A stretch of 64,000 nucleotides of DNA from Plumapathes pennacea (Eukaryota > Cnidaria > Anthozoa > Antipatharia > Myriopathidae), in NCBI GenBank assembly GCA_964036295.1, contig OZ038468.1, positions 1,944,001 through 2,008,000 on the forward strand, given 5' to 3'. The notes beneath the pieces are model-generated. The model saw only the letters and a program-made list of their open reading frames with translations, was not told the DNA's origin and ran no database searches. The position numbers and the translations under genes were made by a program. This document shows positions 20,875-64,000 of this stretch, one piece after another; position 1 is the first letter of the stretch, and each line of letters starts with the position of its first letter.

Positions 20875-20962
20875 TGGGAAGTATCTGCATCAACTAGTTT
20901 TATGACTAAGGTTACAGACCTTACGCATGACTCAATATGTTACACGTCAACGTGAAGTCAAG

Positions 20963-21708: not shown

Positions 21709-21709
21709 G

Positions 21710-25265: not shown

Positions 25266-25273
25266 TATAAAAG
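25266..25273 (+). promoter_or_regulatory. TATA box TATAAAAG pointing into the satellite
   Basis: A consensus TATAAAAG motif on the plus strand, about 50 bp before the satellite begins. A start 25-30 bp downstream would fall near 25296-25303, so a transcript would enter the array almost at once. A chance match in AT-rich DNA cannot be excluded. Confidence 0.35.
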
Positions 25274-25320
25274 GACATCAGAGGAAACCCTTTATTGCTA
25301 TTCACTTGAAATTACAGTTT

Positions 25321-28300
25321 TCACTTTTTGGCCAAAATCGGCAAAAAACCCTGTGCTATAGCCTTAGTATTTTGTCAAAATTCCAACATTTTTCGACCAT
25401 CTCAGAATCGCATGAAACTTTCAGGAAACATTGCCCGGACCATGCCGACAAAGTTTGCATAGTTTTTGTAAACTTTTAGCCCGCGCCTCGTGAGCAATTA
25501 GAGCAAATTAGAGCAAATGACGCACTAATTAATTCATCACACCTTTCGAGGAAAGGAGTCAGTTTAATCTGCTATATTTCGCCAACGGATAAAGATAGAT
25601 AAGGCAACCGTATTGCTAAAAGTCTTCTTATAGTCCAAGGAAGGTTTCCTGAAAGTTTCAAGAGTTTTCACTTTTTGGCCAAAATCGGCAAAAAACCCTG
25701 TGCTATAGCCTTAGTATTGTGTCAAAATTCCAACATTTTTCGACCATCTCAGAATCGCATGAAACTTTCAGGAAACATTGCCGGGACCATGCCGACAAAG
25801 TTTGCATAGTTTTTGTAAACTTTTAGCCCGCGCCTCGTGAGAAATTACAGCAAATTAGAGCAAATGACGCACTAATTAATTCATCACACCTTTCGAGGAA
25901 AGGAGCCAGTTTAATCTGTTATATCTCGCCAACGGATGAAGATAGATAAGGCAAATGTATTGCTAAAAGTCTTCTTATAGTCCAAGGAAGGTTTCCTGAA
26001 AGTTTCAAGAGTTTTCACTTTTTGGCCAAAATCGGCAAAAAACCCTGTGCTATAGCCTTAGTATTTTGTCAAAATTCCAACATTTTTCGACCATCTCAGA
26101 ATCGCATGAAACTTTCAGGAAACATTGCCGGGACCATGCCGACAAAGTTTGCATAGTTTTTGTAAACTTTTAGCCCGCGCCTCGTGAGCAATTAGAACAA
26201 ATTAGAGCAAATGACGCACTAATTAATTCATCACACCTTTCGAGGAAAGGAGCCAGTTTAATCTGCTATATCTCGCCAACGGATGAAGATAGATAAGGCA
26301 AATGTATTGCTAAAGGTCTTCTTATAGTCCAAGGAAGGTTTCCTAAAAGTTTCAAGAGTTTTCACTTTTTGGCCAAAATCGGCAAAAAACCCTGTGCTAT
26401 AGCCTTAGTATTTTGTCAAAATTCCAACATTTTTCGACCATCTCAGAATCGCATGAAACTTTCAGGAAACATTGCCGGGACCATGCCGACAAAGTTTGCA
26501 TAGTTTTTGTAAACTTTCAGCCCGCGCCTCGTGAGAAATTACAGCAAATTAGAGCAAATGACGCACTAATTAATTCATCACACCTTTCGAGGAAAGGAGT
26601 CAGTTTAATCTGCTATATCTCGCCAACGGATGAAGATAGATAAGGCAAATGTATTGCTAAAAGTCTTCTTATAGTCCAAGGAAGGTTTCCTGAAAGTTTC
26701 AAGAGTTTTCACTTTTTGGCCAAAATCGGCAAAAAACCCTGTGCTATAGCCTTAGTATTGTGTCAAAATTCCAACATTTTTCGACCATCTCAGAATCGCA
26801 TGAAACTTTCAGGAAACATTGCTGGGACTATGCCGACAAAGTTTCATTGTTTTTGTAAACTTTTAGCCCGCGCCTCGTGAGGAATTAGAGCAAATTAGAG
26901 CAAATGACGCACTAATTAATTCATCACACCTTTCGAGGAAAGGAGTCAGTTTAATCTGGTATATCTCGCCAACGGATGAAGATAGATAAGGCAAATGTAT
27001 TGCTAAAGGTCTTCTTATAGTCCAAGGAAGGTTTCCTGAAAGTTTCAAGAGTTTTCACTTTTTGGCCAAAATCGGCAAAAAACCCTGTGCTATAGCCTTA
27101 GTATTTTGTCAAAATTCCAACATTTTTCGACCATCTCAGAATCGCATGAAACTTTCAGGAAACATTGCCGGGACCATGCCGACAAAGTTTACATAGTTTT
27201 TGTAAACTTTTAGCCCGCGCCTCGTGAGAAATTACAGCAAATTAGTGCAAATGACGCACTAATTAATTCATCACACCTTTCGAGGAAAGGAGCCAGTTTA
27301 ATCTGCTATATCTCGCCAACGGATGAAGATAGATAAGGCAAATGTATCGCTAAAAGTCTTCTTATAGTCCAAGGAAGGTTTCCTGAAAGTTTCAAGAGTT
27401 TTCACTTTTTGGCCAAAATCGGCAAAAAACCCTGTGCTATAGCCTTAGTATTTTGTCAAAACTCCAACATTTTTCGACCATCTCAGAATCGCATGAAACT
27501 TTCAGGAAACATTGCCGGGACTTTGCCGACAAAGTTTGCATAGTTTTTGTGAACTTTTAGCCCGCGCCTCGTGAGGAATTACAGCAAATTAGAGCAAATG
27601 ACGCACTAATTAATTCAACACACCTTTCGAGGAAAGGAGCCAGTTTAATCTGCTATATCTCGCCAACGGATGAAGATAGATAAGGCAAATGTATTGCTAA
27701 AAGTCTTCTTATAGTCCAAGGAAGGTTTCCTGAAAGTTTCAAGAGTTTTCATTTTTTGGCCAAAATCGGCAAAAAACCCTGTGCTATAGCCTTAGTATTG
27801 TGTCAAAATTCCAACATTTTTCGACCATCTCAGAATCGCATGAAACTTTCAGGAAACATTGCCGGGACTTTGCCGACAAAGTTTGCATAGTTTTTGTGAA
27901 CTTTTAGCCCGCGCCTCGTGAGGAATTACAGCAAATTAGAGCAAATGACGCACTAATTAATTCAACACACCTTTCGAGGAAAGGAGCCAGTTTAATTTGC
28001 TATATCTCGCCAACGGATGAAGATAGATAAGGCAAATGTATTGCTAAAAGTCTTCTTATAGTCCTAGGAAGGTTTCCTGAAAGTTTCAAGAGTTTTCATT
28101 TTTTGGCCAAAATCGGCAAAAAACCCTGTGCTATAGCCTTAGTATTGTGTCAAAATTCCAACATTTTTCGACCATCTAAGAATCGCATGAAACTTTCAGG
28201 AAACATTGCCGGGACCATGCCGACAAAGTTTGCATAGTTTTTGTAAACTTTTAGCCCGCGCCTCGTGAGCAATTAGAACAAATTAGAGCAAATGACGCAC

Positions 28301-30524
28301 TAATTAATTCATCACACCTTTCGAGGAAAGGAGCCAGTTTAATCTGCTATATCTCGCCAACGGATGAAGATAGATGAGGCAAATGTATTGCTAAAGGTCT
28401 TCTTATAGTCCAAGGAAGGTTTCCTGAAAGTTTCAAGAGTTTTCACTTTTTGGCCAAAATCGGCAAAAAACCCTGTGCTATAGCCTTAGTATTTTGTCAA
28501 AATTCCAACATTTTTCGACCATCTCAGAATCGCATGAAACTTTCAGGAAACATTGCCGGGACCATGCCGACAAAGTTTACATAGTTTTTGTAAACTTTTA
28601 GCCCGCGCCTCGTGAGAAATTACAGCAAATTAGTGCAAATGACGCACTAATTAATTCATCACACCTTTCGAGGAAAGGAGCCAGTTTAATCTGCTATATC
28701 TCGCCAACGGATGAAGATAGATAAGGCAAATGTATCGCTAAAAGTCTTCTTATAGTCCAAGGAAGGTTTCCTGAAAGTTTCAAGAGTTTTCACTTTTTGG
28801 CCAAAATCGGCAAAAAACCCTGTGCTATAGCCTTAGTATTTTGTCAAAACTCCAACATTTTTCGACCATCTCAGAATCGCATGAAACTTTCAGGAAACAT
28901 TGCCGGGACTTTGCCGACAAAGTTTGCATAGTTTTTGTGAACTTTTAGCCCGCGCCTCGTGAGGAATTACAGCAAATTAGAGCAAATGACGCACTAATTA
29001 ATTCAACACACCTTTCGAGGAAAGGAGCCAGTTTAATCTGCTATATCTCGCCAACGGATGAAGATAGATAAGGCAAATGTATTGCTAAAAGTCTTCTTAT
29101 AGTCCAAGGAAGGTTTCCTGAAAGTTTCAAGAGTTTTCATTTTTTGGCCAAAATCGGCAAAAAACCCTGTGCTATAGCCTTAGTATTGTGTCAAAATTCC
29201 AACATTTTTCGACCATCTCAGAATCGCATGAAACTTTCAGGAAACATTGCCGGGACTTTGCCGACAAAGTTTGCATAGTTTTTGTGAACTTTTAGCCCGC
29301 GCCTCGTGAGGAATTACAGCAAATTAGAGCAAATGACGCACTAATTAATTCAACACACCTTTCGAGGAAAGGAGCCAGTTTAATTTGCTATATCTCGCCA
29401 ACGGATGAAGATAGATAAGGCAAATGTATTGCTAAAAGTCTTCTTATAGTCCTAGGAAGGTTTCCTGAAAGTTTCAAGAGTTTTCATTTTTTGGCCAAAA
29501 TCGGCAAAAAACCCTGTGCTATAGCCTTAGTATTGTGTCAAAATTCCAACATTTTTCGACCATCTAAGAATCGCATGAAACTTTCAGGAAACATTGCCGG
29601 GACCATGCCGACAAAGTTTGCATAGTTTTTGTAAACTTTTAGCCCGCGCCTCGTGAGCAATTAGAACAAATTAGAGCAAATGACGCACTAATTAATTCAT
29701 CACACCTTTCGAGGAAAGGAGCCAGTTTAATCTGCTATATCTCGCCAACGGATGAAGATAGATGAGGCAAATGTATTGCTAAAGGTCTTCTTATAGTCCA
29801 AGGAAGGTTTCCTGAAAGTTTCAAGAGTTTTCACTTTTTGGCCAAAATCGGCAAAAATCCCTGTGCTATAGCCTTAGTATTTTGTCAAAATTCCAACATT
29901 TTTCGACCATCTCAGAATCGCATGAAACTTTCAGGAAACATTGCCGGGACCATGACGACAAAGTTTGCATAGTTTTTGTAAACTTTTAGCCCGCGCCTCG
30001 TGAGCAAATAGAACAAATTAGAGCAAATGACGCACTAATTAATTCATCACACCTTTCGAGGAAAGGAGCCAGTTTAATCTGCTATATCTCGCCAACGGAT
30101 GAAGATAGATGAGGCAAATGTATTGCTAAAGGTCTTCTAATAGTCCAAGGAAGGTTTCCTGAAAGTTTCAAGAGTTTTCACTTTTTGGCCAAAATCGGCA
30201 AAAAACCCTGTGCTATAGCCTTAGTATTTTGTCAAAATTCCAACATTTTTCGACCATCTCAGAATCGCATGAAACTTTCAGGAAACATTGCCGGGACCAT
30301 GACGACAAAGTTTGCATAGTTTTTGTAAACTTTTAGCCCGCGCCTCGTGAGCAATTAGAACAAATTAGAGCAAATGACGCACTAATTAATTCATCACACC
30401 TTTCGAGGAAAGGAGCCAGTTTAATCTGCTATATCTCGCCAACGGATGAAGATAAATAAGGCAAATGTATTGCTAAAGGTCTTCTTATAGTCCAAGGAAG
30501 GTTTCCTGAAAGTTTCAAGAGTTT
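25321..30524 (+). repeat. Satellite block I, 15 units (5204 bp)
   Basis: First 15 units. Diagnostic variants include CCCGGACC and ATTTCGCC in unit 1, GTTTCATTG in unit 5, and TTTACATAG with GTGCAAATG in unit 6. Units 6-9 (27055-28442) are repeated as units 10-13 (28443-29830), an exact 1388-bp step. Confidence 0.85.
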
Positions 30525-32605
30525 TCACTTTTTGGCCAAAATCGGCAAAAAACCCTGTGCTATAGCCTTAGTATTTTGTCAAAATTCCAACATTTTTCGA
30601 CCATCTCAGAATCGCATGAAACTTTCAGGAAACATTGCCCGGACCATGCCGACAAAGTTTGCATAGTTTTTGTAAACTTTTAGCCCGCGCCTCGTGAGCA
30701 ATTAGAGCAAATTAGAGCAAATGACGCACTAATTAATTCATCACACCTTTCGAGGAAAGGAGTCAGTTTAATCTGCTATATTTCGCCAACGGATAAAGAT
30801 AGATAAGGCAACCGTATTGCTAAAAGTCTTCTTATAGTCCAAGGAAGGTTTCCTGAAAGTTTCAAGAGTTTTCACTTTTTGGCCAAAATCGGCAAAAAAC
30901 CCTGTGCTATAGCCTTAGTATTGTGTCAAAATTCCAACATTTTTCGACCATCTCAGAATCGCATGAAACTTTCAGGAAACATTGCCGGGACCATGCCGAC
31001 AAAGTTTGCATAGTTTTTGTAAACTTTTAGCCCGCGCCTCGTGAGAAATTACAGCAAATTAGAGCAAATGACGCACTAATTAATTCATCACACCTTTCGA
31101 GGAAAGGAGCCAGTTTAATCTGTTATATCTCGCCAACGGATGAAGATAGATAAGGCAAATGTATTGCTAAAAGTCTTCTTATAGTCCAAGGAAGGTTTCC
31201 TGAAAGTTTCAAGAGTTTTCACTTTTTGGCCAAAATCGGCAAAAAACCCTGTGCTATAGCCTTAGTATTTTGTCAAAATTCCAACATTTTTCGACCATCT
31301 CAGAATCGCATGAAACTTTCAGGAAACATTGCCGGGACCATGCCGACAAAGTTTGCATAGTTTTTGTAAACTTTTAGCCCGCGCCTCGTGAGCAATTAGA
31401 ACAAATTAGAGCAAATGACGCACTAATTAATTCATCACACCTTTCGAGGAAAGGAGCCAGTTTAATCTGCTATATCTCGCCAACGGATGAAGATAGATAA
31501 GGCAAATGTATTGCTAAAGGTCTTCTTATAGTCCAAGGAAGGTTTCCTAAAAGTTTCAAGAGTTTTCACTTTTTGGCCAAAATCGGCAAAAAACCCTGTG
31601 CTATAGCCTTAGTATTTTGTCAAAATTCCAACATTTTTCGACCATCTCAGAATCGCATGAAACTTTCAGGAAACATTGCCGGGACCATGCCGACAAAGTT
31701 TGCATAGTTTTTGTAAACTTTCAGCCCGCGCCTCGTGAGAAATTACAGCAAATTAGAGCAAATGACGCACTAATTAATTCATCACACCTTTCGAGGAAAG
31801 GAGTCAGTTTAATCTGCTATATCTCGCCAACGGATGAAGATAGATAAGGCAAATGTATTGCTAAAAGTCTTCTTATAGTCCAAGGAAGGTTTCCTGAAAG
31901 TTTCAAGAGTTTTCACTTTTTGGCCAAAATCGGCAAAAAACCCTGTGCTATAGCCTTAGTATTGTGTCAAAATTCCAACATTTTTCGACCATCTCAGAAT
32001 CGCATGAAACTTTCAGGAAACATTGCTGGGACTATGCCGACAAAGTTTCATTGTTTTTGTAAACTTTTAGCCCGCGCCTCGTGAGGAATTAGAGCAAATT
32101 AGAGCAAATGACGCACTAATTAATTCATCACACCTTTCGAGGAAAGGAGTCAGTTTAATCTGGTATATCTCGCCAACGGATGAAGATAGATAAGGCAAAT
32201 GTATTGCTAAAGGTCTTCTTATAGTCCAAGGAAGGTTTCCTGAAAGTTTCAAGAGTTTTCACTTTTTGGCCAAAATCGGCAAAAAACCCTGTGCTATAGC
32301 CTTAGTATTTTGTCAAAATTCCAACATTTTTCGACCATCTCAGAATCGCATGAAACTTTCAGGAAACATTGCCGGGACCATGCCGACAAAGTTTACATAG
32401 TTTTTGTAAACTTTTAGCCCGCGCCTCGTGAGAAATTACAGCAAATTAGTGCAAATGACGCACTAATTAATTCATCACACCTTTCGAGGAAAGGAGCCAG
32501 TTTAATCTGCTATATCTCGCCAACGGATGAAGATAGATAAGGCAAATGTATCGCTAAAAGTCTTCTTATAGTCCAAGGAAGGTTTCCTGAAAGTTTCAAG
32601 AGTTT
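30525..32605 (+). repeat. Satellite block II, copy of block I units 1-6 (2081 bp)
   Basis: The block-I variant series restarts at 30525: CCCGGACC near 30637 and GTTTCATTG near 32046, in the same order and spacing. It stops after unit 6, where the next unit switches origin. Confidence 0.82.
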
Positions 32606-35600
32606 TCACTTTTTGGCCAAAATCGGCAAAAAACCCTGTGCTATAGCCTTAGTATTTTGTCAAAACTCCAACATTTTTCGACCATCTCAGAATCGCATGA
32701 AACTTTCAGGAAACATTGCCCGGACCATGCCGACAAAGTTTGCATAGTTTTTGTAAACTTTTAGCCCGCGCCTCGTGAGCAATTAGAGCAAATTAGAGCA
32801 AATGACGCACTAATTAATTCATCACACCTTTCGAGGAAAGGAGTCAGTTTAATCTGCTATATTTCGCCAACGGATAAAGATAGATAAGGCAACCGTATTG
32901 CTAAAAGTCTTCTTATAGTCCAAGGAAGGTTTCCTGAAAGTTTCAAGAGTTTTCACTTTTTGGCCAAAATCGGCAAAAAACCCTGTGCTATAGCCTTAGT
33001 ATTGTGTCAAAATTCCAACATTTTTCGACCATCTCAGAATCGCATGAAACTTTCAGGAAACATTGCCGGGACCATGCCGACAAAGTTTGCATAGTTTTTG
33101 TAAACTTTTAGCCCGCGCCTCGTGAGAAATTACAGCAAATTAGAGCAAATGACGCACTAATTAATTCATCACACCTTTCGAGGAAAGGAGCCAGTTTAAT
33201 CTGTTATATCTCGCCAACGGATGAAGATAGATAAGGCAAATGTATTGCTAAAAGTCTTCTTATAGTCCAAGGAAGGTTTCCTGAAAGTTTCAAGAGTTTT
33301 CACTTTTTGGCCAAAATCGGCAAAAAACCCTGTGCTATAGCCTTAGTATTTTGTCAAAATTCCAACATTTTTCGACCATCTCAGAATCGCATGAAACTTT
33401 CAGGAAACATTGCCGGGACCATGCCGACAAAGTTTGCATAGTTTTTGTAAACTTTTAGCCCGCGCCTCGTGAGCAATTAGAACAAATTAGAGCAAATGAC
33501 GCACTAATTAATTCATCACACCTTTCGAGGAAAGGAGCCAGTTTAATCTGCTATATCTCGCCAACGGATGAAGATAGATAAGGCAAATGTATTGCTAAAG
33601 GTCTTCTTATAGTCCAAGGAAGGTTTCCTAAAAGTTTCAAGAGTTTTCACTTTTTGGCCAAAATCGGCAAAAAACCCTGTGCTATAGCCTTAGTATTTTG
33701 TCAAAATTCCAACATTTTTCGACCATCTCAGAATCGCATGAAACTTTCAGGAAACATTGCCGGGACCATGCCGACAAAGTTTGCATAGTTTTTGTAAACT
33801 TTCAGCCCGCGCCTCGTGAGAAATTACAGCAAATTAGAGCAAATGACGCACTAATTAATTCATCACACCTTTCGAGGAAAGGAGTCAGTTTAATCTGCTA
33901 TATCTCGCCAACGGATGAAGATAGATAAGGCAAATGTATTGCTAAAAGTCTTCTTATAGTCCAAGGAAGGTTTCCTGAAAGTTTCAAGAGTTTTCACTTT
34001 TTGGCCAAAATCGGCAAAAAACCCTGTGCTATAGCCTTAGTATTGTGTCAAAATTCCAACATTTTTCGACCATCTCAGAATCGCATGAAACTTTCAGGAA
34101 ACATTGCTGGGACTATGCCGACAAAGTTTCATTGTTTTTGTAAACTTTTAGCCCGCGCCTCGTGAGGAATTAGAGCAAATTAGAGCAAATGACGCACTAA
34201 TTAATTCATCACACCTTTCGAGGAAAGGAGTCAGTTTAATCTGGTATATCTCGCCAACGGATGAAGATAGATAAGGCAAATGTATTGCTAAAGGTCTTCT
34301 TATAGTCCAAGGAAGGTTTCCTGAAAGTTTCAAGAGTTTTCACTTTTTGGCCAAAATCGGCAAAAAACCCTGTGCTATAGCCTTAGTATTTTGTCAAAAT
34401 TCCAACATTTTTCGACCATCTCAGAATCGCATGAAACTTTCAGGAAACATTGCCGGGACCATGCCGACAAAGTTTACATAGTTTTTGTAAACTTTTAGCC
34501 CGCGCCTCGTGAGAAATTACAGCAAATTAGTGCAAATGACGCACTAATTAATTCATCACACCTTTCGAGGAAAGGAGCCAGTTTAATCTGCTATATCTCG
34601 CCAACGGATGAAGATAGATAAGGCAAATGTATCGCTAAAAGTCTTCTTATAGTCCAAGGAAGGTTTCCTGAAAGTTTCAAGAGTTTTCACTTTTTGGCCA
34701 AAATCGGCAAAAAACCCTGTGCTATAGCCTTAGTATTTTGTCAAAACTCCAACATTTTTCGACCATCTCAGAATCGCATGAAACTTTCAGGAAACATTGC
34801 CGGGACTTTGCCGACAAAGTTTGCATAGTTTTTGTGAACTTTTAGCCCGCGCCTCGTGAGGAATTACAGCAAATTAGAGCAAATGACGCACTAATTAATT
34901 CAACACACCTTTCGAGGAAAGGAGCCAGTTTAATCTGCTATATCTCGCCAACGGATGAAGATAGATAAGGCAAATGTATTGCTAAAAGTCTTCTTATAGT
35001 CCAAGGAAGGTTTCCTGAAAGTTTCAAGAGTTTTCATTTTTTGGCCAAAATCGGCAAAAAACCCTGTGCTATAGCCTTAGTATTGTGTCAAAATTCCAAC
35101 ATTTTTCGACCATCTCAGAATCGCATGAAACTTTCAGGAAACATTGCCGGGACTTTGCCGACAAAGTTTGCATAGTTTTTGTGAACTTTTAGCCCGCGCC
35201 TCGTGAGGAATTACAGCAAATTAGAGCAAATGACGCACTAATTAATTCAACACACCTTTCGAGGAAAGGAGCCAGTTTAATTTGCTATATCTCGCCAACG
35301 GATGAAGATAGATAAGGCAAATGTATTGCTAAAAGTCTTCTTATAGTCCTAGGAAGGTTTCCTGAAAGTTTCAAGAGTTTTCATTTTTTGGCCAAAATCG
35401 GCAAAAAACCCTGTGCTATAGCCTTAGTATTGTGTCAAAATTCCAACATTTTTCGACCATCTAAGAATCGCATGAAACTTTCAGGAAACATTGCCGGGAC
35501 CATGCCGACAAAGTTTGCATAGTTTTTGTAAACTTTTAGCCCGCGCCTCGTGAGCAATTAGAACAAATTAGAGCAAATGACGCACTAATTAATTCATCAC

Positions 35601-37809
35601 ACCTTTCGAGGAAAGGAGCCAGTTTAATCTGCTATATCTCGCCAACGGATGAAGATAGATGAGGCAAATGTATTGCTAAAGGTCTTCTTATAGTCCAAGG
35701 AAGGTTTCCTGAAAGTTTCAAGAGTTTTCACTTTTTGGCCAAAATCGGCAAAAAACCCTGTGCTATAGCCTTAGTATTTTGTCAAAATTCCAACATTTTT
35801 CGACCATCTCAGAATCGCATGAAACTTTCAGGAAACATTGCCGGGACCATGCCGACAAAGTTTACATAGTTTTTGTAAACTTTTAGCCCGCGCCTCGTGA
35901 GAAATTACAGCAAATTAGTGCAAATGACGCACTAATTAATTCATCACACCTTTCGAGGAAAGGAGCCAGTTTAATCTGCTATATCTCGCCAACGGATGAA
36001 GATAGATAAGGCAAATGTATCGCTAAAAGTCTTCTTATAGTCCAAGGAAGGTTTCCTGAAAGTTTCAAGAGTTTTCACTTTTTGGCCAAAATCGGCAAAA
36101 AACCCTGTGCTATAGCCTTAGTATTTTGTCAAAACTCCAACATTTTTCGACCATCTCAGAATCGCATGAAACTTTCAGGAAACATTGCCGGGACTTTGCC
36201 GACAAAGTTTGCATAGTTTTTGTGAACTTTTAGCCCGCGCCTCGTGAGGAATTACAGCAAATTAGAGCAAATGACGCACTAATTAATTCAACACACCTTT
36301 CGAGGAAAGGAGCCAGTTTAATCTGCTATATCTCGCCAACGGATGAAGATAGATAAGGCAAATGTATTGCTAAAAGTCTTCTTATAGTCCAAGGAAGGTT
36401 TCCTGAAAGTTTCAAGAGTTTTCATTTTTTGGCCAAAATCGGCAAAAAACCCTGTGCTATAACCTTAGTATTGTGTCAAAATTCCAACATTTTTCGACCA
36501 TCTCAGAATCGCATGAAACTTTCAGGAAACATTGCCGGGACTTTGCCGACAAAGTTTGCATAGTTTTTGTGAACTTTTAGCCCGCGCCTCGTGAGGAATT
36601 ACAGCAAATTAGAGCAAATGACGCACTAATTAATTCAACACACCTTTCGAGGAAAGGAGCCAGTTTAATTTGCTATATCTCGCCAACGGATGAAGATAGA
36701 TAAGGCAAATGTATTGCTAAAAGTCTTCTTATAGTCCTAGGAAGGTTTCCTGAAAGTTTCAAGAGTTTTCATTTTTTGGCCAAAATCGGCAAAAAACCCT
36801 GTGCTATAGCCTTAGTATTGTGTCAAAATTCCAACATTTTTCGACCATCTAAGAATCGCATGAAACTTTCAGGAAACATTGCCGGGACCATGCCGACAAA
36901 GTTTGCATAGTTTTTGTAAACTTTTAGCCCGCGCCTCGTGAGCAATTAGAACAAATTAGAGCAAATGACGCACTAATTAATTCATCACACCTTTCGAGGA
37001 AAGGAGCCAGTTTAATCTGCTATATCTCGCCAACGGATGAAGATAGATGAGGCAAATGTATTGCTAAAGGTCTTCTTATAGTCCAAGGAAGGTTTCCTGA
37101 AAGTTTCAAGAGTTTTCACTTTTTGGCCAAAATCGGCAAAAATCCCTGTGCTATAGCCTTAGTATTTTGTCAAAATTCCAACATTTTTCGACCATCTCAG
37201 AATCGCATGAAACTTTCAGGAAACATTGCCGGGACCATGACGACAAAGTTTGCATAGTTTTTGTAAACTTTTAGCCCGCGCCTCGTGAGCAAATAGAACA
37301 AATTAGAGCAAATGACGCACTAATTAATTCATCACACCTTTCGAGGAAAGGAGCCAGTTTAATCTGCTATATCTCGCCAACGGATGAAGATAGATGAGGC
37401 AAATGTATTGCTAAAGGTCTTCTAATAGTCCAAGGAAGGTTTCCTGAAAGTTTCAAGAGTTTTCACTTTTTGGCCAAAATCGGCAAAAAACCCTGTGCTA
37501 TAGCCTTAGTATTTTGTCAAAATTCCAACATTTTTCGACCATCTCAGAATCGCATGAAACTTTCAGGAAACATTGCCGGGACCATGACGACAAAGTTTGC
37601 ATAGTTTTTGTAAACTTTTAGCCCGCGCCTCGTGAGCAATTAGAACAAATTAGAGCAAATGACGCACTAATTAATTCATCACACCTTTCGAGGAAAGGAG
37701 CCAGTTTAATCTGCTATATCTCGCCAACGGATGAAGATAAATAAGGCAAATGTATTGCTAAAGGTCTTCTTATAGTCCAAGGAAGGTTTCCTGAAAGTTT
37801 CAAGAGTTT
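32606..37809 (+). repeat. Satellite block III, second full 15-unit copy (5204 bp)
   Basis: Repeats block I at an offset of 7285 bp, including the inner 4-unit duplication (34340-35727 and 35728-37115) and the last-unit variant GATAAATAAGG (near 37735, matching near 30450). The first unit is chimeric. I noticed very few differences from block I, for example CTATAACC near 36460. Confidence 0.82.
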
Positions 37810-50900: not shown

Positions 50901-51730
50901 ATCTGCTATATCTCGCCAACGGATGAAGATAGATAAGGCAAACGTAATGCTAAAAGTCTTCTTATAGTCCAAGGAAGGTTTCCTGAAAGTTTCAAGAGTT
51001 TTCACTTTTTGGCCAAAATCGGCAAAAAACCCTGTGCTATAGCCTTAGTATTTTGTCAAAATTCCAACATTTTTCGACCATCTCAGAATCGCATGAAACT
51101 TTCAGGAAACATTGCTGGGACTATGCCGACAAAGTTTGCATAGTTTTTGTAAACTTTTAGCCCGCGCGTCGCGAGAAATTACAGCAAATTAGAGCAAATG
51201 ACGCACTAATTAATTCATCACACCTTTAGAGGAAAGGAGCCAAGTTAATTTTACTATATCTCGCCAACGGATGAAGATAGATAAGGCAAATGTATTGCTA
51301 AAGGTCTTCTTATAGTCCAAGGAAGGTTTCCTGAATGTTTCAAGAGTTTTCACTTTTTGGCCAAAATCGGCAAAAAACCCTGTGCTATAGCCTTAGTATT
51401 TTGTCAAAATTCCAACATTTTTCGACCATCTCAGAATCGCATGAAACTTACAGGAAACATTGCTGGGACTATGCCGACAAAGTTTGCATAGTTTTTGTAA
51501 ACTTTTAGCCCGCGCGTCGCGAGAAATTAGATCAAATTAGAGCAAATGACAGACTAATTAATTCATCACACCTTTAGAGGAAAGGAGCCAAGTTAAATCT
51601 GCTATATGTCGCCAACGGATGAAGATAGATAAGGCAAATGTATTGCTAAAAGTCTTCTTATAGTCCAAGGAAGGTTTCCTGAAAGTTTCAAGAGTTTTTA
51701 CTTTTTGGCGAAAATCGGCAAAAAACCCTG
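47901..51730 (+). repeat. Satellite 3-unit block present three times
   Basis: The rare variant GCCTCAGTATTTTG, together with the preceding GGCATAAAACCC, occurs near 47918, 48961 and 50697. Each is followed in order by units with GTTAATTTTACTATATC and CCTGAATGTTTC. The offsets are about 1043 bp (3 units) and 1736 bp (5 units). A second shared marker, TTACAGAAACATTTCCGGG, is at 47281 and 50060. Confidence 0.7.
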
Positions 51731-52689
51731 TGCTATAGCCTTAGTATTTTGTCAAAATTCCAACATTTTTCGACCATCTCACAATCGCATGAAACTTTCA
51801 GGAAACATTGCTGGGACTATGCCGACAAAGTTTGCATAGTTTTTGTAAACTTTTAGCCCGCGCCTCGTGAGAAATTACAGCAAATTAGAGCAAATGACGC
51901 ACCAATTAATTCATCACACCTTTCGAGGAAAGGAGCCAGTTTAATCTGTCATATCTCGCAAACGGCTGAAGATAGAGGAGGCAAATGTGTTGCTAAAAGT
52001 CTTCTTATAGTCCAAGGAAGGTTTCCTGAAAGTTTCAAGAGTTTTCACTTTTTGGCCAAAATCGGCAAAAAACCCTGTGCTATAGCCTTAGTATTTTGTC
52101 AAAATTCCAACATTTTTCGACCATCTCAGAATCGCATGAAACTTTCAGGAAACATTGCTGGGACTATACCGACAAAGTTTGCATAGTTTTTGTAAACTTT
52201 TAGCCCGCGAGTCGTGAGAAATTATAGCAAATTAGAGCAAATGACGCACTAATTAATTCATCACACCTTTCGAGGAAAGGAGCCAGTTTAATCTGCTATA
52301 TCTTGCCAACGGATGAAGATAGATATAGCAAATGTATTGCTAAAGGTCTTCTTATAGTCCAAGGAAGGTTTCCTGAAAGTTTCAAGAGTTTTCACTTTTT
52401 GGCCAAAATCGGCAAAAAACCCTGTGCTATAGCCTTAGTATTTTGTCAAAATTCCAACATTTTTCGACCATCTCAGAATCGCATGAAACTTTCAGGAAAC
52501 ATTGCTGGGACTATGTCGACAAAGTTTGCATAGTTTTTGTAAACTTTTAGCCCGCGCGTCGCGAGAAATTACAGCAAATTAGAGCAAACGACGCACTAAT
52601 TAATTCATCACACCTTTCGAGGAAAGGAGCCAAGTTTAATCTGCTATATCTCGCCAACGGGTGAAGATAGATAAGGCAAATGTATTGCT

Positions 52690-55600
52690 AAAAGCCTTCT
52701 TATAGTCCAAAGAAGGTTTCCTGAAAGTTTCAAGAGTTTTCACTTTTTGGCCAAAATCGCCAAAAAACCCTGTGCTATAGCCTTAGTATTTTGTCAAAAT
52801 TCCAACATTTTTCGACCATCTCAGAATCGCATGAAACTTTCAGGAAACATTGCTGGGACTATGCCGACAAAGTTTGCATAGTTTTTGTAAACTTTTAGCC
52901 CGCGCCTCGTGAGAAATTAGAGCAAATTAGAGCAAATGACACACTAATTAATTCATCACACCTTTCGAGGAAAGGAGCCAAGTTAAATCTGCTATATGTC
53001 GCCAACGGATGAAGATAGATAAGGCAAATGTATTGCTAAAAGTCTTATTATAATCCAAGGAAGGTTTCCTGAAAGTTTCAAGAGTTTTCACTTTTTGGCC
53101 AAAATCGGCAAAAAACCCTGTGCTATAGCCTTAGTATTTTGTTAAAATTCCAACATTTTTCGACCATCTCACAATCGCATGAAACTTTCAGGAAACATTT
53201 CTGGGACTATGCCGACAAAGTTTGCATAGTTTTTGTAAACTTTTAGCCCGCGCGTCGCGAGAAATTACAGCAAATTCGAGCAAATGACGCACTAATTAAT
53301 TCATCACACCTTTCGAGGAAAGGAGCCAAGTTTAATCTGCTATATCTCGCCAACGGATGAAGATAGATAAGGCAAATGTATTGCTAAAAGCCTTCTTATA
53401 GTCCAAAGAAGATTTCCTGAAAGTTTCAAGAGTTTTCACTTTTTGGCCAAAATCGGCATAAAACCCTGTGCTATAGCCTTAGTATTTTGTCAAAATTCCA
53501 ACATTTTTCGACCATCTCAGAATCGCATGAAACTTTCAGGAAACATTGCTAGGACTATGCCGACAAAGTTTGCATAGTTTTTGTAAACTTTTAGCCCGCG
53601 CCTCGTGAGAAATTACAGCAAATTAGAGCAAATGACGCACCAATTAATTCATCACACCTTTCGAGGAAAGGAGCAAGTTTAATCTGTCATATCTCGCCAA
53701 CGGATGAAGATAGATATAGCAAATGTGTTGCTAAAAGTCTTCTTATAGTCCAAGGAAGGTTTCCTGAAAGTTTCAAGAGTTTTCACTTTTTGGCCAAAAT
53801 CGGCAAAAAACCCTGTGCTATAGCCTTAGTATTTTGTCAAAATTCCAACATTTTTCGACCATCTCAGAATCGCATGAAACTTTCAGGAAACATTGCTGGG
53901 ACTATGCCGACAAAGTTTGCATAATTTTTGTAAACTTTTAGCCCGCGCCTCGTGAGAAATTATAGCAAATTAGAGCAAATGACGCACTAATTAATTCATC
54001 ACACCTTTCGAGGAAAGGAGCCAAGTTAAATCTGCTATATCTCGCCAACGGATAAAGATAGATAAGGCAAATGTATTGCTAAAAGTCTTCTTATAGTCCA
54101 AGGAAGGTTTCCTGAAAGTTTCAAGAGTTTTCACTTTTTGGCCAAAATCGCTAAAAAACCCTGTGCTATAGCCTTAGTATTTTGTTAAAAATCCAACATT
54201 TTTCGACCATCTCACAATCGCATGAAACTATCAGGAAACACTTCTGGGACTATGCCGACAAAGTTTGCATAGTTTTTGTAAACTTTTAGCCCGCGCGTCG
54301 CGAGAAATTAGAGCAAATTAGAGCAAATGACACACTAATTAATTCATCACACCTTTCGAGGAAAGGAGCCAAGTTAAATCTGCTATATGTCGCCAACGGA
54401 TGAAGATAGATAAGGCAAATGTATTGCTAAAAATCTTATTATAGTCCAAGGAAGGTTTCCTGAAAGTTTCAAGAGTTTTCACTTTTTGGCCAAAATCGGC
54501 AAAAAACCCTGTGCTATAGCCTTAGTATTTTGTTAAAATTCCAACATTTTTCGACCATCTCACAATCGCATGAAACTTTCAGGAAACATTGCTGGGACTA
54601 TGCCGACAAAGTTTGCATAGTTTTTGTAAACTTTTAGCCCGCGCGTCGCGAGAAATTACAGCAAATTCGAGCAAATGACGCACTAATTAATTCATCACAC
54701 CTTTCGAGGAAAGGAGCCAAGTTTAATCTGCTATATCTCGCCAACGGATGAAGATAGATAAGGCAAATGTATTGCTAAAAGCCTTCTTATAGTCCAAAGA
54801 AGGTTTCCTGAAAGTTTCAAGAGTTTTCACTTTTTGGCCAAAATCGGCAAAAAACCCTGTGCTATAGCCTTAGTATTTTGTTAAAATTCCAACATTTTTC
54901 GACCATCTCAGAATCGCATGAAACTTTCAGGAAACATTGCTGGGACTATGCCGACAAAGTTTGCATAGTTTTTGTAAACTTTTAGCCCGCGCCTCGTGAG
55001 AAATTACAGCAAATTAGAGCAAATGACGCACCAATTAATTCATCACACCTTTCGAGGAAAGGAGCCAGTTTAATCTGTCATATCTCGCCAACGGCTGAAG
55101 ATAGATATAGCAAATGTGTTGCTAAAAGTCTTCTTATAGTCCAAGGAAGGTTTCCTGAAAGTTTCAAGAGTTTTCACTTTTTGGCCAAAATCGGCAAAAA
55201 ACCCTGTGCTATAGCCTTAGTATTTTGTCAAAATTCCAAAATTTTTCGACCATCTCAGAATCGCATGATACTTTCAGGAAACATTGCTGGGACTATGCCG
55301 ACAAAGTTTGCATAGTTTTTGTAAACTTTTAGCCCGCGCGTCGTGAGAAATTATAGCAAATTAGAGCAAATGACGCACTAATTAATTCATCACACCTTTC
55401 GAGGAAAGGAGCCAAGTTAAATCTGCTATATCTCGCCAACGGATAAAGATAGATAAGGCAAATGTATTGCTAAAAGTCTTCTTATAGTCCAAGGAAGGTT
55501 TCCTGAAAGTTTCAAGAGTTTTCACTTTTTGGCCAAAATCGCCAAAAAACCCTGTGCTATAGCCTTAGTATTTTGTTAAAAATCCAACATTTTTCGACCA

Positions 55601-58500
55601 TCTCACAATCGCATGAAACTTTCAGGAAACATTGCTGGGACTATGCCGACAAAGTTTGCATAGTTTTTGTAAACTTTTAGCCCGCGCGTCGCAAGAAATT
55701 ACAGCAAATTAGAGCAAATGACACACTAATTAATTCATCACACCTTTCGAGGAAAGGAGCCAGGTTTAATCTGCTATATCTCGCCAACGGATGAAGATAG
55801 ATAAGGCAAATGTATTGCTAAAAGTCTTATTATAGTCCAAGGAAGGTTTCTTGAAAGTTTCAAGAGTTTTCACTTTTTGGCCAAAATCGGCAAAAAACCC
55901 TGTGCTATAGCCTTAGTATTTTGTCAAAATTCCAACATTTTTCGACCATCTCAGAATCGCATGAAACTTTCAGGAAACATTGCTGGGACTATGCCGACAA
56001 AGTTTGCATAGTTTTTGTAAACTTTTAGCCCGCGCGTCGCGAGAAATTACAGCAAATTCGAGCAAATGACGCACTAATTAATTCATCACACCTTTCGAGG
56101 AAAGGAGCCAAGTTTAATCTGCTATATCTCGCCAACGGATGAAGATAGATAAGGCAAATGTATTGCTAAAAGCCTTCTTATAGTCCAAAGAAGGTTTCCT
56201 GAAAGTTTCAAGAGTTTTCACTTTTTGGCCAAAATCGGCAAAAAACCCTGTGCTATAACCTTAGTATTTTGTCAAAATTCCAACATTTTTCGACCATCTC
56301 AGAATCGCATGAAACTTTCAGGAAACATTGCTGGGACTATGCCGACAAAGTTTGCATAGTTTTTGTAAACTTTTAGCCCGCGCCTCGTGAGAAATTACAG
56401 CAAATTAGAGCAAATGACGCACCAATTAATTCATCACACCTTTCGAGGAAAGGAGCCAGTTTAATCTGTCATATCTCGCCAACGGATGAAGATAGATATA
56501 GCAAATGTGTTGCTAAAAGTCTTCTTATAGTCCAAGGAAGGTTTCCTGAAAGTTTCAAGAGTTTTCACTTTTTGGCCAAAATCGGCAAAAAACCCTGTGC
56601 TATAGCCTTAGTATTTTGTCAAAATTCCAACATTTTTCGACCATCTCAGAATCGCATGAAACTTTCAGGAAACATTGCTGGGACTATGCCGACAAAGTTT
56701 GCATAGTTTTTGTAAACTTTTAGCTCGCGCCTCGTGAGAAATTATAGCAAATTAGAGCAAATGACGCACTAATTAATTCATCACACCTTTCGAGGAAAGG
56801 AGCCAGTTTAATCTGCTATATCTTGCCAACGGATGAAGATAGATAAGGCAAATGTATTGCTAAAGGTCTTCTTATAGTCCAAGGAAGGTTTCCTGAATGT
56901 TTCAAGAGTTTTCACTTTTTGGCCAAAATCGGCAAAAAACCCTGTGCTATAGCCTTAGTATTTTGTCAAAATTCCAACATTTTTCGACCATCTCAGAATC
57001 GCATGAAACTTACAGGAAACATTGCTGGGACTATGCCGACAAAGTTTGCATAGTTTTTGTAAACTTTTAGCCCGCGCGTCGCGAGAAATTAGATCAAATT
57101 AGAGCAAATGACACACTAATTAATTCATCACACCTTTAGAGGAAAGGAGCCAAGTTAAATCTGCTATATCTCGCCAACGGATGAAGATAGATAAAGCAAA
57201 TGTATTGCTAAAAGTCTTCTTATAGTCCAAAGAAGGTTTCCTGAAAGTTTCAAGAGTTTTTACTTTTTGGCCAAAATCGGCAAAAAACCCTGTGCTATAG
57301 CCTTAGTATTTTGTCAAAATTCCAACATTTTTCGACCATCTCACAATCGCATGAAACTTTCAGGAAACATTGCTGGGACTATGCCGACAAAGTTTGCATA
57401 GTTTTTGTAAACTTTTAGCCCGCGCGTCGCGAGAAATTACAGCAAATTCGAGCAAATGACGCACTAATTAATTCATCACACCTTTCGAGGAAAGGAGCCA
57501 AGTTTAATCTGCTATATCTCGCCAACGGATGAAGATAGATAAGGCAAATGTATTGCTAAAAGCCTTCTTATAGTCCAAAGAAGGTTTCCTGAAAGTTTCA
57601 AGAGTTTTCACTTTTTGGCCAAAATCGGCAAAAAACCCTGTGCTATAGCCTTAGTATTTTGTCAAAATTCCAACATTTTTCGACCATCTCACAATCGCAT
57701 GAAACTTTCAGGAAACATTGCTGGGACTATGCCGACAAAGTTTGCATAGTTTTTGTAAACTTTTAGCCCGCGCCTCGTGAGAAATTACAGCAAATTAGAG
57801 CAATTGACGCACCAATTAATTCATCACACCTTTCGAGGAAAGGAGCCAGTTTAATCTGTCATATCTCGCCAACGGATGAAGATAGATATAGCAAATGTGT
57901 TGCTAAAAGTCTTCTTATAGTCCAAGGAAGGTTTCCTGAAAGTTTCAAGAGTTTTCACTTTTTGGCCAAAATCGGCAAAAAACCCTGTGCTATAGCCTTA
58001 GTATTTTGTCAAAATTCCAACATTTTTCGACCATCTCAGAATCGCATGAAACTTTCAGGAAACATTGCTGGGACTATGCCGACAAAGTTTGCATAGTTTT
58101 TGTAAACTTTTAGCCCGCGCCTCGTGAGAAATTATAGCAAATTAGAGCAAATGACGCACTAATTAATTCATCACACCTTTCGAGGAAAGGAGCCAGTTTA
58201 ATCTGCTATATCTTGCCAACGGATGAAGATAGATAAGGCAAATGTATTGCTAAAGGTCTTCTTATAGTCCAAGGAAGGTTTCCTGAATGTTTCAAGAGTT
58301 TTCACTTTTTGGCCAAAATCGGCAAAAAACCCTGTGCTATAGCCTTAGTATTTTGTCAAAATTCCAACATTTTTCGACCATCTCAGAATCGCATGAAACT
58401 TACAGGAAACATTGCTGGGACTATGCCGACAAAGTTTGCATAGTTTTTGTAAACTTTTAGCCCGCGCGTCGCGAGAAATTAGATCAAATTAGAGCAAATG
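52690..58500 (+). repeat. Satellite 4-unit higher-order repeat, ~1391-bp period
   Basis: AGCCTTCTTATAGTCCAAAG is found at 53389, 54780, 56171 and 57561, steps of 1391, 1391 and 1390. Independently, ACCAATTAATTC is at 53639, 55030, 56421 and 57811. Two markers with the same spacing show a real 4-mer repeat, distinct from the 1388-bp 4-mer in block I. Ends are approximate. Confidence 0.8.
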
Positions 58501-61500
58501 ACACACTAATTAATTCATCACACCTTTCGAGGAAAGGAGCCAAGTTAAATCTGCTATATCTCGCCAACGGATGAAGATAGATAAAGCAAATGTATTGCTA
58601 AAAGTCTTCTTATAGTCCAAAGAAGGTTTCCTGAAAGTTTCAAGAGTTTTTACTTTTTGGCCAAAATCGGCAAAAAACCCTGTGCTATAGCCTTAGTATT
58701 TTGGTTAAATTCCAACATTTTTCGACCATCTCAGAATCGCATGAAACTTTCAGGAAACATTGCTGGGACTATGCCGACAAAGTTTGCATAGTTTTTGTAA
58801 ACTTTTAGCCCGCGCCTCGTGAGAAATTACAGCAAATTAGAGCAAATGACGCACCAATTAATTCATCACACCTTTCGAGGAAAGGAGCCAGTTTAATCTG
58901 TTATATCTCGCCAACGGCTGAAGATAGATATAGCAAATGTGTTGCTAAAACTCTTCTTATAGTCCAAGGAAGGTTTTCTGAAAGTTTCAAGAGTTTTCAC
59001 TTTTTGGCCAAAATCGGCAAAAAACCCTGTGCTATAGCCTTAGTATTTTGTCAAAATTCCAACATTTTTCGACCATCTCAGAATCGCATGAAACTTTCAG
59101 GAAACATTGCTGGGACTATGCCGACAAAGTTTGCATAGTTTTTGTAAACTTTTAGCCCGCGCCTCGTGAGAAATTATAGCAAATTAAAGCAATTGACGCA
59201 CTAATTAATTCATCACACCTTTCGAGGAAAGGAGCCAGTTTAATCTGTCATATCTCGCCAACGGCTGAAGATAAATATAGCAAATGTGTTGCTAAAAGTC
59301 TTCTTATAGTCCAAGGAAGGTTTCCTGAAAGTTTCAAGAGTTTTCACTTTTTGGCCAAAATCGGCAAAAAACCCTGTGCTATAGCCTTAGTATTTTGTCA
59401 AAATTCCAACATTTTTCGACCATCTCACAATCGCATGAAACTTTCAGCAAACATTGCCGAGACCATGCCGACAAAGTGTGCATAGTTTTTGTAAACTTTT
59501 AGCCCGCGCCTCGTGAGGAATTGGAGCAAATTAGAGCAAATGACGCACTAATTAATTCATCACACCTTTCGAGGAAAGGAGCCAGTTTAATCTGCTATAT
59601 CTTGCCAACGGATGAAGATAGATAAGGCAAATGTATTGCTAAAGGTCTTCTTATAGTCCAAGGAAGGTTTCCTGAAAGTTTCAAGAGTTTTCACTTTTTG
59701 GCCAAAATCGGCAAAAAACCCTGTGCTATAGCCTTAGTATTTTGTCAAAATTCCAACATTTTTCGACCATCTCAGAATCGCATGAAACTTACAGGAAACA
59801 TTGCTGGGACTATGCCGACAAAGTTTGCATAGTTTTTGTAAACTTTTAGCCCGCGCGTCGCGAGAAATTAGATCAAATTAGAGCAAATGACACACTAATT
59901 AATTCATCACACCTTTAGAGGAAAGGAGCCAAGTTAAATCTGCTATATCTCGCCAACGGATGAAGATAAATAAGGCAAATGTATTGCTAAAAGTCTTCTT
60001 ATAGTCCAAGGAAGGTTTCCTGAAAGTTTCAAGAGTTTTTACTTTTTGGCCAAAATCGGCAAAAAACCCTGTGCTATAGCCTTAGTATTTTGGTTAAATT
60101 CCAACATTTTTCGACCATCTCAGAATCGCATGAAACTTTCAGGAAACATTGCTGGGACTATGCCGACAAAGTTTGCATAGTTTTTGTAAACTTTTAGCCC
60201 GCGCCTCGTGAGAAATTACAGCAAATTAGAGCAAATGACGCACCAATTAATTCATCACACCTTTCGAGGAAAGGAGCCAGTTTAATCTGTCATATCTCGC
60301 CAACGGCTGAAGATAGATATAGCAAATGTGTTGCTAAAAGTCTTCTTATACTCCAAGGAAGGTTTCCTGAAAGTTTCAAGAGTTTTCACTTTTTGGCCAA
60401 AATCGGCAAAAAACCCTGTGCTATAGCCTTAGTATTTTGTCAAAATTCCAACATTTTTCGACCCTCTCAGAATCGCATGAAACTTTCAGGAAACATTGCT
60501 GGGACTATGCCGACAAAGTTTGCATAGTTTTTGTAAACTTTTAGCCCGCACCTCGTGAGAAATTACAGCAAATTAGAGCAAATGACGCACCAATTAATTC
60601 ATCACACCTTTCGAGGAAAGGAGCCAGTTTAATCTGTCATATCTCGCCAACGGCTGAAGATAGATATAGCAAATGTGTTGCTAAAAGTCTTCTTATAGTC
60701 CAAGGAAGGTTTCCTGAAAGTTTCAAGAGTTTTCACTTTTTGGCCAAAATCGCCAAAAAACCCTGTGCTATAGCCTTAGTATTTTGTCAAAATTCCAACA
60801 TTTTTCGACCATCTCAGAATCGCATGAAACTTTCAGGAAACATTGCTGGGACTATGCCGACAAAGTTTGCATAGTTTTTGTAAACTTTTAGCCCGCGCCT
60901 CGTGAGAAATTATAGCAAATTAGAGCAAATGACGCACTAATTAATTCATCACACCTTTCGAGGAAAGGAGCCAGTTTAATCTGTCATATCTCGCCAACGG
61001 CTGAAGATAAATATAGCAAATGTGTTGCTAAAAGTCTTCTTATAGTCCAAGGAAGGTTTCCTGAAAGTTTCAAGAGTTTTCACTTTTTGGCCAAAATCGG
61101 CAAAAAACCCTGTGCTATAGCCTTAGTATTTTGTCAAAATTCCAACATTTTTCGACCATCTCAGAATCGCATGAAACTTTCAGGAAACATTGCTGGGACT
61201 ATGCCGACAAAGTTTGCATAGTTTTTGTAAACTTTTAGCCCGCGCCTCGTGAGAAATTACAGCAAATTAGAGCAAATGACGCACCAATTAATTCATCACA
61301 CCTTTCGAGGAAAGGAGCCAGTTTAATCTGTCATATCTCGCCAACGGCTGAAGATAGATATAGCAAATGTGTTGCTAAAAGTCTTCTTATAGTCCAAGGA
61401 AGGTTTCCTGAAAGTTTCAAGAGTTTTCACTTTTTGGCCAAAATCGCCAAAAAACCCTGTGCTATAGCCTTAGTATTTTGTCAAAATTCCAACATTTTTC

Positions 61501-64000
61501 GACCATCTCAGAATCGCATGAAACTTTCAGGAAACATTGCTGGGACTATGCCGACAAAGTTTGCATAGTTTTTGTAAACTTTTAGCCCGCGCCTCGTGAG
61601 AAATTATAGCAAATTAGAGCAAATGACGCACTAATTAATTCATCACACCTTTCGAGGAAAGGAGCCAGTTTAATCTGTCATATCTCGCCAACGGCTGAAG
61701 ATAAATTTAGCAAATGTGTTGCTAAAAGTCTTCTTATAGTCCAAGGAAGGTTTCCTGAAAGTTTCAAGAGTTTTCACTTTTTGGCCAAAATTGGCAAAAA
61801 ACCCTGTGCTATAGCCTTAGTATTTTGTCAAAATTCCAACATTTTTCGACCATCTCAGAATCGCATGAAACTTTCAGGAAACATTGCCGGGACCATGCCG
61901 ACAAAGTGTGCATAGTTTTTGTAAACTTTTAGCCCGCGCCTCGTGAGGAATTGGAGCAAATTATAGCAAATGACGCACTAATTAATTCATCACACCTTTC
62001 GAGGAAAGGAGCCAGTTTAATCTGCTATATCTTGCCAACGGATAAAGATAGATAAGGCAAATGTATTGCTAAAGGTCTTCTTATAGTCCAAGGAAGGTTT
62101 CCTGAATGTTTCAAGAGTTTTGACTTTTTGGCCAAAATCGGCAAAAAACCCTGTGCTATAGCCTTAGTATTTTGTCAAAATTCCAACATTTTTCGACCAT
62201 CTCAGAATCGCATGAAACTTTCAGGAAACATTGCTGGGACTATGCCGACAAAGTTTGCATAGTTTTTGTAAACTTTTAGCCCGCGCGTCGCGAGAAATTA
62301 GATCAAATTAGAGCAAATGACACACTAATTAATTCATCACACCTTTAGAGGAAAGGAGCCAAGTTAAATCTGCTATATCTCGCCAATGGATGAAGATAGA
62401 TAAAGCAAATGTATTGCTAAAAGTCTTCTTATAGTCCAAGGAAGGTTTCCTGAAAGTTTCAAGAGTTTTTACTTTTTGGCCAAAATCGGCAAAAAACCCT
62501 GTGCTATAGCCTTAGTATTTTGGTTAAATTCCAACATTTTTCGACCATCTCAGAATCGCATGAAACTTTCAGGAAACATTGCTGGGACTATGCCGACAAA
62601 GTTTGCATAGTTTTTGTAAACTTTTAGCCCGCGCCTCGTGAGAAATTACAGCAAATTAGAGCAAATGACGCACCAATTAATTCATCACACCTTTCGAGGA
62701 AAGGAGCCAGTTTAATCTGTCATATCTCGCCAACGGCTGAAGATAGATATAGCAAATGTGTTGCTAAAAGTCTTCTTATAGTCCAAGGAAGGTTTCCTGA
62801 AAGTTTCAAGAGTTTTCACTTTTTGGCCAAAATCGGCAAAAAACCCTGTGCTATAGCCTTAGTATTTTGTCAAAATTCCAACATTTTTCGACCATCTCAG
62901 AATCGCATGAAACTTTCAGGAAACATTGCTGGGACTATGCCGACAAAGTTTGCATAGTTTTTGTAAACTTTTAGCCCGCGCCTCGTGAGAAATTACAGCA
63001 AATTAGAGCAAATGACGCACCAATTAATTCATCACACCTTTCGAGGAAAGGAGCCAGTTTAATCTGTCATATCTCGCCAACGGCTGAAGATAGATATAGC
63101 AAATGTGTTGCTAAAAGTCTTCTTATAGTCCAAGGAAGGTTTCCTGAAAGTTTCAAGAGTTTTCACTTTTTGGCCAAAATCGCCAAAAAACCCTGTGCTA
63201 TAGCCTTAGTATTTTGTCAAAATTCCAACATTTTTCGACCATCTCAGAATTGCATGAAACTTTCAGGAAACATTGCTGGGACTATGCCGACAAAGTTTGC
63301 ATAGTTTTTGTAAACTTTCAGCCCGCGCGTCGTGAGAAATTATAGCAAGTTAGAGCAAATGACGCACTAATTAATTCATCACACCTTTCGAGGAAAGGAG
63401 CCAGTTTAATCTGTCATATCTCGCCAACGGCTGAAGATAAATATAGCAAATGTGTTGCTAAAAGTCTTCTTATAGTCCAAGGAAGGTTTCCTGAAAGTTT
63501 CAAGAGTTTTCACTTTTTGGCCAAAATCGGCAAAAAACCCTGTGCTATAGCCTTAGTATTTTGTCAAAATTCCAACATTTTTCGACCATCTCACAATCGC
63601 ATGAAACTTTCAGCAAACATTGCCGAGACCATGCCGACAAAGTGTGCATAGTTTTTGTAAACTTTTAGCCCGCGCCTCGTGAGGAATTGGAGCAAATTAG
63701 AGCAAATGACGCACTAATTAATTCATCACACCTTTCGAGGAAAGGAGCCAGTTTAATCTGCTATATCTTGCCAACGGATTAAGATAGATAAGGCAAATGT
63801 ATTGCTAAAGGTCTTCTTATAGTCCAAGGAAGGTTTCCTGAAAGTTTCAAGAGTTTTCACTTTTTGGCCAAAATCGGCAAAAAACCCTGTGCTATAGCCT
63901 TAGTATTTTGTCAAAATTCCAACATTTTTCGACCATCTCAGAATCGCATGAAACTTTCAGGAAACATTGCTGGGACTATGCCGACAAAGTTTGCATAATT

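What the first reader, a model, noticed from the sequence alone, without database searches (positions are those of the whole stretch)
25316..64000. Large gene-adjacent 347-bp satellite of dinucleosomal length
About 111 uninterrupted copies in one orientation, starting sharply beside unique DNA and running off the window. 347 bp equals about two nucleosome repeats. This makes it a candidate centromeric, pericentromeric or heterochromatic satellite lying only 4.5 kb from the housekeeping gene PRCC. I do not recognise the unit from any family.
Basis: partly seen in the sequence, partly recalled or inferred. Interest (0 to 1): 0.75.

Follow-up and report, generated by a model that had tools for sequence, protein, structure and literature searches.

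The report
Long 347-bp satellite array beside PRCC
A run of more than a hundred near-identical 347-base repeats really does start about 4.5 kb past the PRCC gene of what is probably an animal genome, but it looks like an ordinary satellite array, and nothing in the sequence shows that it is a centromere.

Summary
From 25316 to the window end at 64000 lie 111 complete head-to-tail units of 346-348 bp plus a 149-base partial unit, on one strand, uninterrupted, with mean pairwise identity 95.6%. The array starts sharply, 4,490 bp past the stop codon of a PRCC gene on the same strand.

The length is about two nucleosome repeats, but I found no AA/TT phasing, no CENP-B box better than chance and no protected domain in the unit. 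Genome copy number could not be measured: no genome is held.

Two added features. Each unit carries a 31-bp inverted repeat (27 of 31; best of 200 shuffles 21), possibly a transposon-end relic, but without target-site duplication or compensatory changes. The gene-side edge (units 1-36) is the youngest part, with nested multi-unit duplications differing at 2 of 5,204 bases; the interior is older, with a weak four-unit period.

Best reading: an ordinary satellite array, homogenised by unequal exchange or replication, recently growing at its edge. A centromeric role is untested. New member of a known kind.

The parts
25316..64000 (+). 347-bp satellite array, 111 complete units plus a 149-base partial unit, running off the window
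25316..37804 (+). young edge of the array (units 1-36): nested block duplications with offsets of 4, 6, 15, 17 and 21 units; units 1-15 and 22-36 differ at 2 of 5,204 bases
37805..63851 (+). older interior (units 37-111), mean pairwise identity 0.953, weak four-unit higher-order period
25413..25443 (+). left arm of the 31-bp inverted repeat, as placed in unit 1 (unit positions 98-128); recurs through the array
25630..25660 (-). right arm of the inverted repeat, as placed in unit 1 (unit positions 315-345); recurs through the array
25266..25273 (+). TATAAAAG box-like site 50 bp before the array; one of 2 on the + strand of the 25.3-kb flank (the other at 3484); function not shown
8307..20826 (+). 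PRCC gene, from the ATG of the first to the stop codon of the last coding exon (five coding pieces read by eye, so at least four introns), 4,490 bp left of the array

Best explanation
This is the edge of an ordinary complex-monomer satellite DNA array, probably in an animal genome. Shown: a 347-bp unit without a long reading frame, head to tail, homogenised to about 95.6%, with block-wise duplications. Inferred mechanism: the array grows and is kept uniform by unequal exchange, or by break-induced or slipped replication, between units in register. This copies blocks of several units at once, which is why the interior has a weak four-unit period and the edge beside PRCC carries nearly identical 4-, 6-, 15- and 21-unit blocks. 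The 31-bp inverted repeat is most likely a relic of the founding sequence, perhaps a small inverted-repeat transposon, or a structure that favours amplification. No sequence-specific job for the unit is shown.
For: Register kept in 111 of 111 units, lengths 346-348. The six exact repeats of 900 bp or more all have offsets of a whole number of units: 4, 6, 15, 17, 21 and 21. Units 1-15 and 22-36 differ at 2 of 5,204 bases, units 1-6 and 16-21 at 0 of 2,081, units 6-9 and 10-13 at 0 of 1,388. In the interior, identity peaks at lags 4 and 8 (z 5.9 and 6.4 against 1,000 permutations), and the pattern can be read off units 79-96. No significantly conserved or variable 60-bp domain along the unit (permutation P 0.70 and 0.15 for variable columns; 0.14 and 0.55 for distinct alleles). 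No open frame over 68 codons in a unit trimer, no tRNA, and no Rfam match near its cut-off in the parts scanned, window 1-30000 and 25316-26703; the array beyond 30000 was not scanned with Rfam.
Against: A block-wise young edge is not the usual expectation (edges are commonly described as the more diverged part of satellite arrays; recalled), so a special process, or an assembly error, could be at work there. Genome abundance and location are unknown, so 'ordinary satellite' rather than 'locus-private macrosatellite' is not shown.
Confidence: 0.62

Rival explanations
1. It is a centromeric or pericentromeric satellite: the unit is a major family of the genome, and the window happens to catch the boundary between a chromosome arm and the centromere.
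For: Large, homogeneous, one-orientation array running off the window with higher-order structure; unit length about two nucleosomes. If the source is a coral (a guess from recall), single repeat probes do map to centromeres of single chromosomes in FISH papers, and one says that in Acropora repeat signals are mainly centromeric (passages of PMC9005458 and PMC12355185).
Against: No CENP-B box: best site has 2 of 9 core mismatches, and 126 of 300 shuffles do as well or better. No AA/TT phasing. No insertion in 38.7 kb and a gene 4.5 kb away, neither decisive. Abundance not measurable.
Confidence: 0.22
2. The unit descends from a small non-autonomous DNA transposon (MITE) of 248 bp with 31-bp ends plus about 99 bp of flank, made tandem by recombination; a statement of origin that can hold together with either reading above.
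For: Inverted repeat of 27 of 31 bases at unit positions 98-128 and 315-345; best of 200 dinucleotide shuffles 21. The outer 17 bases of the consensus match perfectly, as in transposon ends. Published mechanisms for MITE-to-satellite conversion exist (passages of PMC12628747).
Against: No target-site duplication beyond chance in either orientation of the element. No dispersed copy in 25.3 kb of flank and none in the collections searched. Inverted repeats are also frequent in satellites in general (same review). Changes in the arms break pairs without compensation, so no structure is being kept.
Confidence: 0.3
3. The edge block duplications, or the sharp join between unique DNA and satellite, are assembly artefacts.
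For: Near-identical multi-kb blocks (2 differences in 5,204 bp) are what assemblers duplicate or collapse (general knowledge); no reads could be checked.
Against: The blocks are nested with different offsets (4, 6, 15, 17 and 21 units), and the two 15-unit copies differ at 2 places; the interior varies unit by unit as real arrays do.
Confidence: 0.1
4. A retrozyme array: tandem repeats of about 150-450 bp with a hammerhead ribozyme, copied through circular RNA.
For: Size class and tandem form; such repeats occur in corals, mussels and salamanders (passages of PMC7229834).
Against: No hammerhead among the matches of two Rfam scans, one over the first 4.7 kb of the array with E up to 1 and one over four units with E up to 10.
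Confidence: 0.02

Closest known systems
Complex-monomer satellite DNAs with higher-order repeats (review PMC10048060, passages seen; the higher-order comparison is recalled)
   Same: Head-to-tail units without coding content, high homogeneity, dyad structure inside the monomer, block duplications in whole units
   Different: This unit matches nothing in the collections searched; location and abundance unknown
TCAST satellite and its gene-associated elements in Tribolium (PMC3411249, abstract and passages)
   Same: Gene-neighbouring satellite copies; forms with terminal inverted repeats
   Different: Gene-near TCAST arrays in the passages are short (up to tetramers); this one exceeds 111 units. 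The TCAST sequence itself was not compared
Porites 188-bp satellite (PMC10236652, passages)
   Same: Intergenic tandem repeat (there in coral genomes), with a palindrome or inverted repeat
   Different: 188 bp with a palindromic telomeric sequence; this array has no TTAGGG on either strand
Metazoan type I hammerhead retrozymes (PMC7229834, passages)
   Same: Tandem units of a few hundred bp, low GC
   Different: No hammerhead found here in the parts scanned

Membership tests
Satellite DNA | Long head-to-tail array of a non-coding unit with high identity | tested here: met
   111 units, 95.6% mean pairwise identity, longest open frame in a trimer 68 codons
Satellite DNA | High copy number in the genome, several loci | not testable with these tools
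   No genome held
Higher-order-repeat satellite | Multi-unit blocks repeat with higher identity than neighbouring units | tested here: met
   Blocks with offsets of 4, 6, 15, 17 and 21 units at the edge; interior lags 4 and 8, z about 6; irregular, not a clean higher-order array
Centromeric satellite | CENP-A chromatin or position at primary constrictions | not testable with these tools
   No chromatin, FISH or genome data
Centromeric satellite (CENP-B type) | CENP-B box | tested here: not met
   Best site 2 of 9 core mismatches; 126 of 300 shuffles as good or better. Motif recalled
MITE-derived satellite | Terminal inverted repeats | tested here: met
   27 of 31 bases, best of 200 shuffles 21
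MITE-derived satellite | Target-site duplication | tested here: not met
   Best flanking repeats of 2 and 3 bases, within chance; could be lost in a tandem unit
MITE-derived satellite | Solitary dispersed copies in the genome | tested here: inconclusive
   None in 25.3 kb of flank; whole genome not held
Hammerhead retrozyme | Hammerhead ribozyme in each unit | tested here: not met
   window 1-30000; 25316-26703
Porites 188-bp satellite | Telomeric motif in the unit | tested here: not met
   0 TTAGGG on either strand in the array

The most novel reading that the evidence does not exclude
A satellite founded by an inverted-repeat transposon has become a centromere-linked family that grows from its gene-side edge, where a TATA-type start site 50 bp outside the array drives transcription into it, with that transcription tied to the recent block amplification beside PRCC.
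Probability: 0.05. Interest if true: 0.65.

Novelty: new member of a known kind. Interest (0 to 1): 0.25.

Why it matters
An assembled junction between genic DNA and a long satellite is useful: it gives an anchor for mapping the array and a readable record of how arrays grow, here by whole-unit block duplication concentrated at the edge. If the unit proved to be the main satellite of its genome, it would give a candidate centromere probe. If the source is a coral, as I guess, that would help a group where, in the passages I saw, centromeres are placed by FISH markers, recombination and transposon density.

Tried and rejected
Retrozyme, tRNA, 5S or other RNA-gene array: rejected in the parts scanned (one search gave 5 matches with E 1.4-7.7, all far below their families' cut-offs). 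Ancestral dimer or trimer inside the unit: rejected (identity at lags 172-174 and 115-117 is 0.23-0.27, mean 0.26). An 11-bp lag does stand out (0.378, above all 500 shuffles), but its multiples 22 and 33 do not, so I give it no meaning. RNA or DNA hairpin under selection: rejected, as the changes seen break pairs and none is compensated, although one unit folds as DNA better than all 100 shuffles (z -3.6), which follows from the inverted repeat. Methylation decay: not clear; CpG observed/expected is 0.89 in the array and 0.87 in the flank, transitions at CpG are not in significant excess (13 at 24 sites against 48 at 111, Fisher P 0.37), but CpG positions are more diverged, 5.3% against 3.3% for other G and C. 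The first inverted-repeat shuffle test (300 mononucleotide shuffles) let arms overlap and gave a maximum of 26 against 27; it is superseded, which demands separate arms. Absence of AATAAA in the array (0 on both strands) is expected about half the time for a 347-bp unit at the flank's density (hand calculation), so not used.

Relatives: four 20-23 base stretches of the unit in viral contigs gave 2 records, each with one 20-base match in what looks by eye like a reading frame, the shown stretch being the same in both; no longer similarity and only one short, unrelated tandem repeat in each. Two stretches in genome contigs gave none. Phages gave 97 records, of which the 10 listed are 20-32 base matches at E 9; plasmids gave 3 records of 32 bases at E 2. 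By their descriptions these collections hold microbes, viruses and plasmids, so this says little about novelty. A paper search for pieces of the unit found none. Searches for coral, cnidarian or 347-bp satellites listed nothing that I recognised as this repeat; only listed rows were seen, and one listed paper on the plant Crepis holds the words '347 bp' once (PMC12589258, listing only). The organism is not established: PRCC and a TRIM-NHL protein point to an animal (inference), and coral or another anthozoan is my guess from recalled features of the flanking repeats, from no call.

Full report
Observation. The array is real and as described. Tandem Repeats Finder reports one array 25316-63997, period 347, 111.4 copies. 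Cutting by junction gave 111 complete units, 80 of 347, 25 of 348 and 6 of 346 bp, with a 149-base partial unit at the end; mean pairwise identity is 0.956, range 0.914-1.0, with 83 distinct sequences. The start is sharp: unit 1 is 97.4% like the consensus, and no piece of the unit longer than 21 bases, and none with E below 0.18, lies in the 25,315 bases to the left.

Surroundings. To the left is PRCC on the same strand. The hand-joined coding pieces match Pfam PRCC (PF10253) at E 1.2e-18, profile positions 1-189 of 189; the first coding exon begins at 8307 and the stop codon ends at 20826, 4,490 bp before the array. A TRIM-NHL type protein (RING, B-box, filamin, NHL) lies at 1266-3485. A TATAAAAG site sits at 25266, one of 2 on the + strand of the flank; whether it starts transcription is unknown.

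Anatomy of the unit. The array is 38-40% GC; the unit has no long reading frame (68 codons at most in a trimer), and no tRNA or known RNA family near its cut-off in the parts scanned. Its most marked feature is a 31-bp inverted repeat, positions 98-128 against 315-345, 27 of 31 bases complementary, where the best of 200 dinucleotide shuffles reaches 21. The outer 17 bases match perfectly in the consensus; across the 83 distinct units each of these 17 pairs is kept in 72 to 83 of 83. Changes in the arms break pairs and none is compensated; at one position that does not pair in the consensus (120/323) a T variant makes a pair in 47 of 83 units. No target-site duplication beyond chance flanks either form of the element. 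This fits a transposon-end relic or a plain satellite dyad; the two cannot be separated without solitary copies.

How it grew. The six exact repeats of 900 bp or more all start within units 1-36, one running about 120 bp into unit 37, and their offsets are whole units: 4, 6, 15, 17, 21 and 21. Units 1-15 and 22-36 differ at 2 of 5,204 bases, while pairs in units 37-111 differ by 4.7% on average. With a 500-bp threshold, four more exact repeats of 504-744 bp appear in the interior. The interior shows a weak four-unit period (lags 4 and 8, z 5.9 and 6.4; lags 3, 5 and 7 also raised, z 3.0-3.8; lags 34, 35 and 38 lowered, z about -3), visible in units 79-96. So copying is by blocks of whole units, and the most recent rounds are at the gene-side edge. 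Unequal exchange and replication-based copying both predict this; I cannot tell them apart.

Nucleosome and centromere ideas. The length is close to two nucleosome repeats, but the unit is no dimer, AA/TT phasing is not above shuffles, a CENP-B box is not better than chance and no domain of the unit is protected against change beyond chance. CpG is not depleted against the flank. None of this excludes a centromere, since centromere repeats need share no length (PMC4053949, passages). Copy number and location are the tests, and no genome is held.

Known relatives. None found in the collections I could search, which hold microbes, viruses and plasmids. Among coral repeats in print whose passages I saw, the Porites 188-bp satellite has a telomeric sequence, which this array lacks, and hammerhead retrozymes have a ribozyme, which was not found here. 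The FISH probes named could not be compared. That the source is a coral is a guess from memory, not a result.

Verdict. It is most likely an ordinary satellite array and a new member of a known kind; the centromere reading is open but unsupported here.

Noticed in passing
window 25266-25273: TATAAAAG on the + strand 50 bp before the array start; the only other on that strand of the flank is at 3484. A start about 30 bp on would transcribe into the array.
   Followed up: partly
window 20954-21250 with 21701-21997, and 21274-21708 with 22437-22867: Two pairs of direct repeats, 97.6% over 297 bp and 96.1% over 435 bp, between PRCC and the array: a recent local duplication or dispersed repeat.
   Followed up: no
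window 9625-9762, 9827-9972, 10750-10839: Three self-inverted stretches inside a PRCC intron; the first gives weak miRNA-model matches on both strands, far below cut-off. Perhaps small inverted-repeat elements.
   Followed up: no
window 11125-11310: A 93-bp tandem duplication, 2 copies, 97% matches, in a PRCC intron.
   Followed up: no
window 1266-3485: A 740-codon stop-to-stop frame with RING, B-box, filamin and NHL matches, a TRIM-NHL type protein seemingly in one exon.
   Followed up: no
unit consensus, array 25316-64000: Self-identity of the unit at a lag of 11 bp is 0.378, above all 500 shuffles, without raised multiples at 22 and 33; unexplained.
   Followed up: partly
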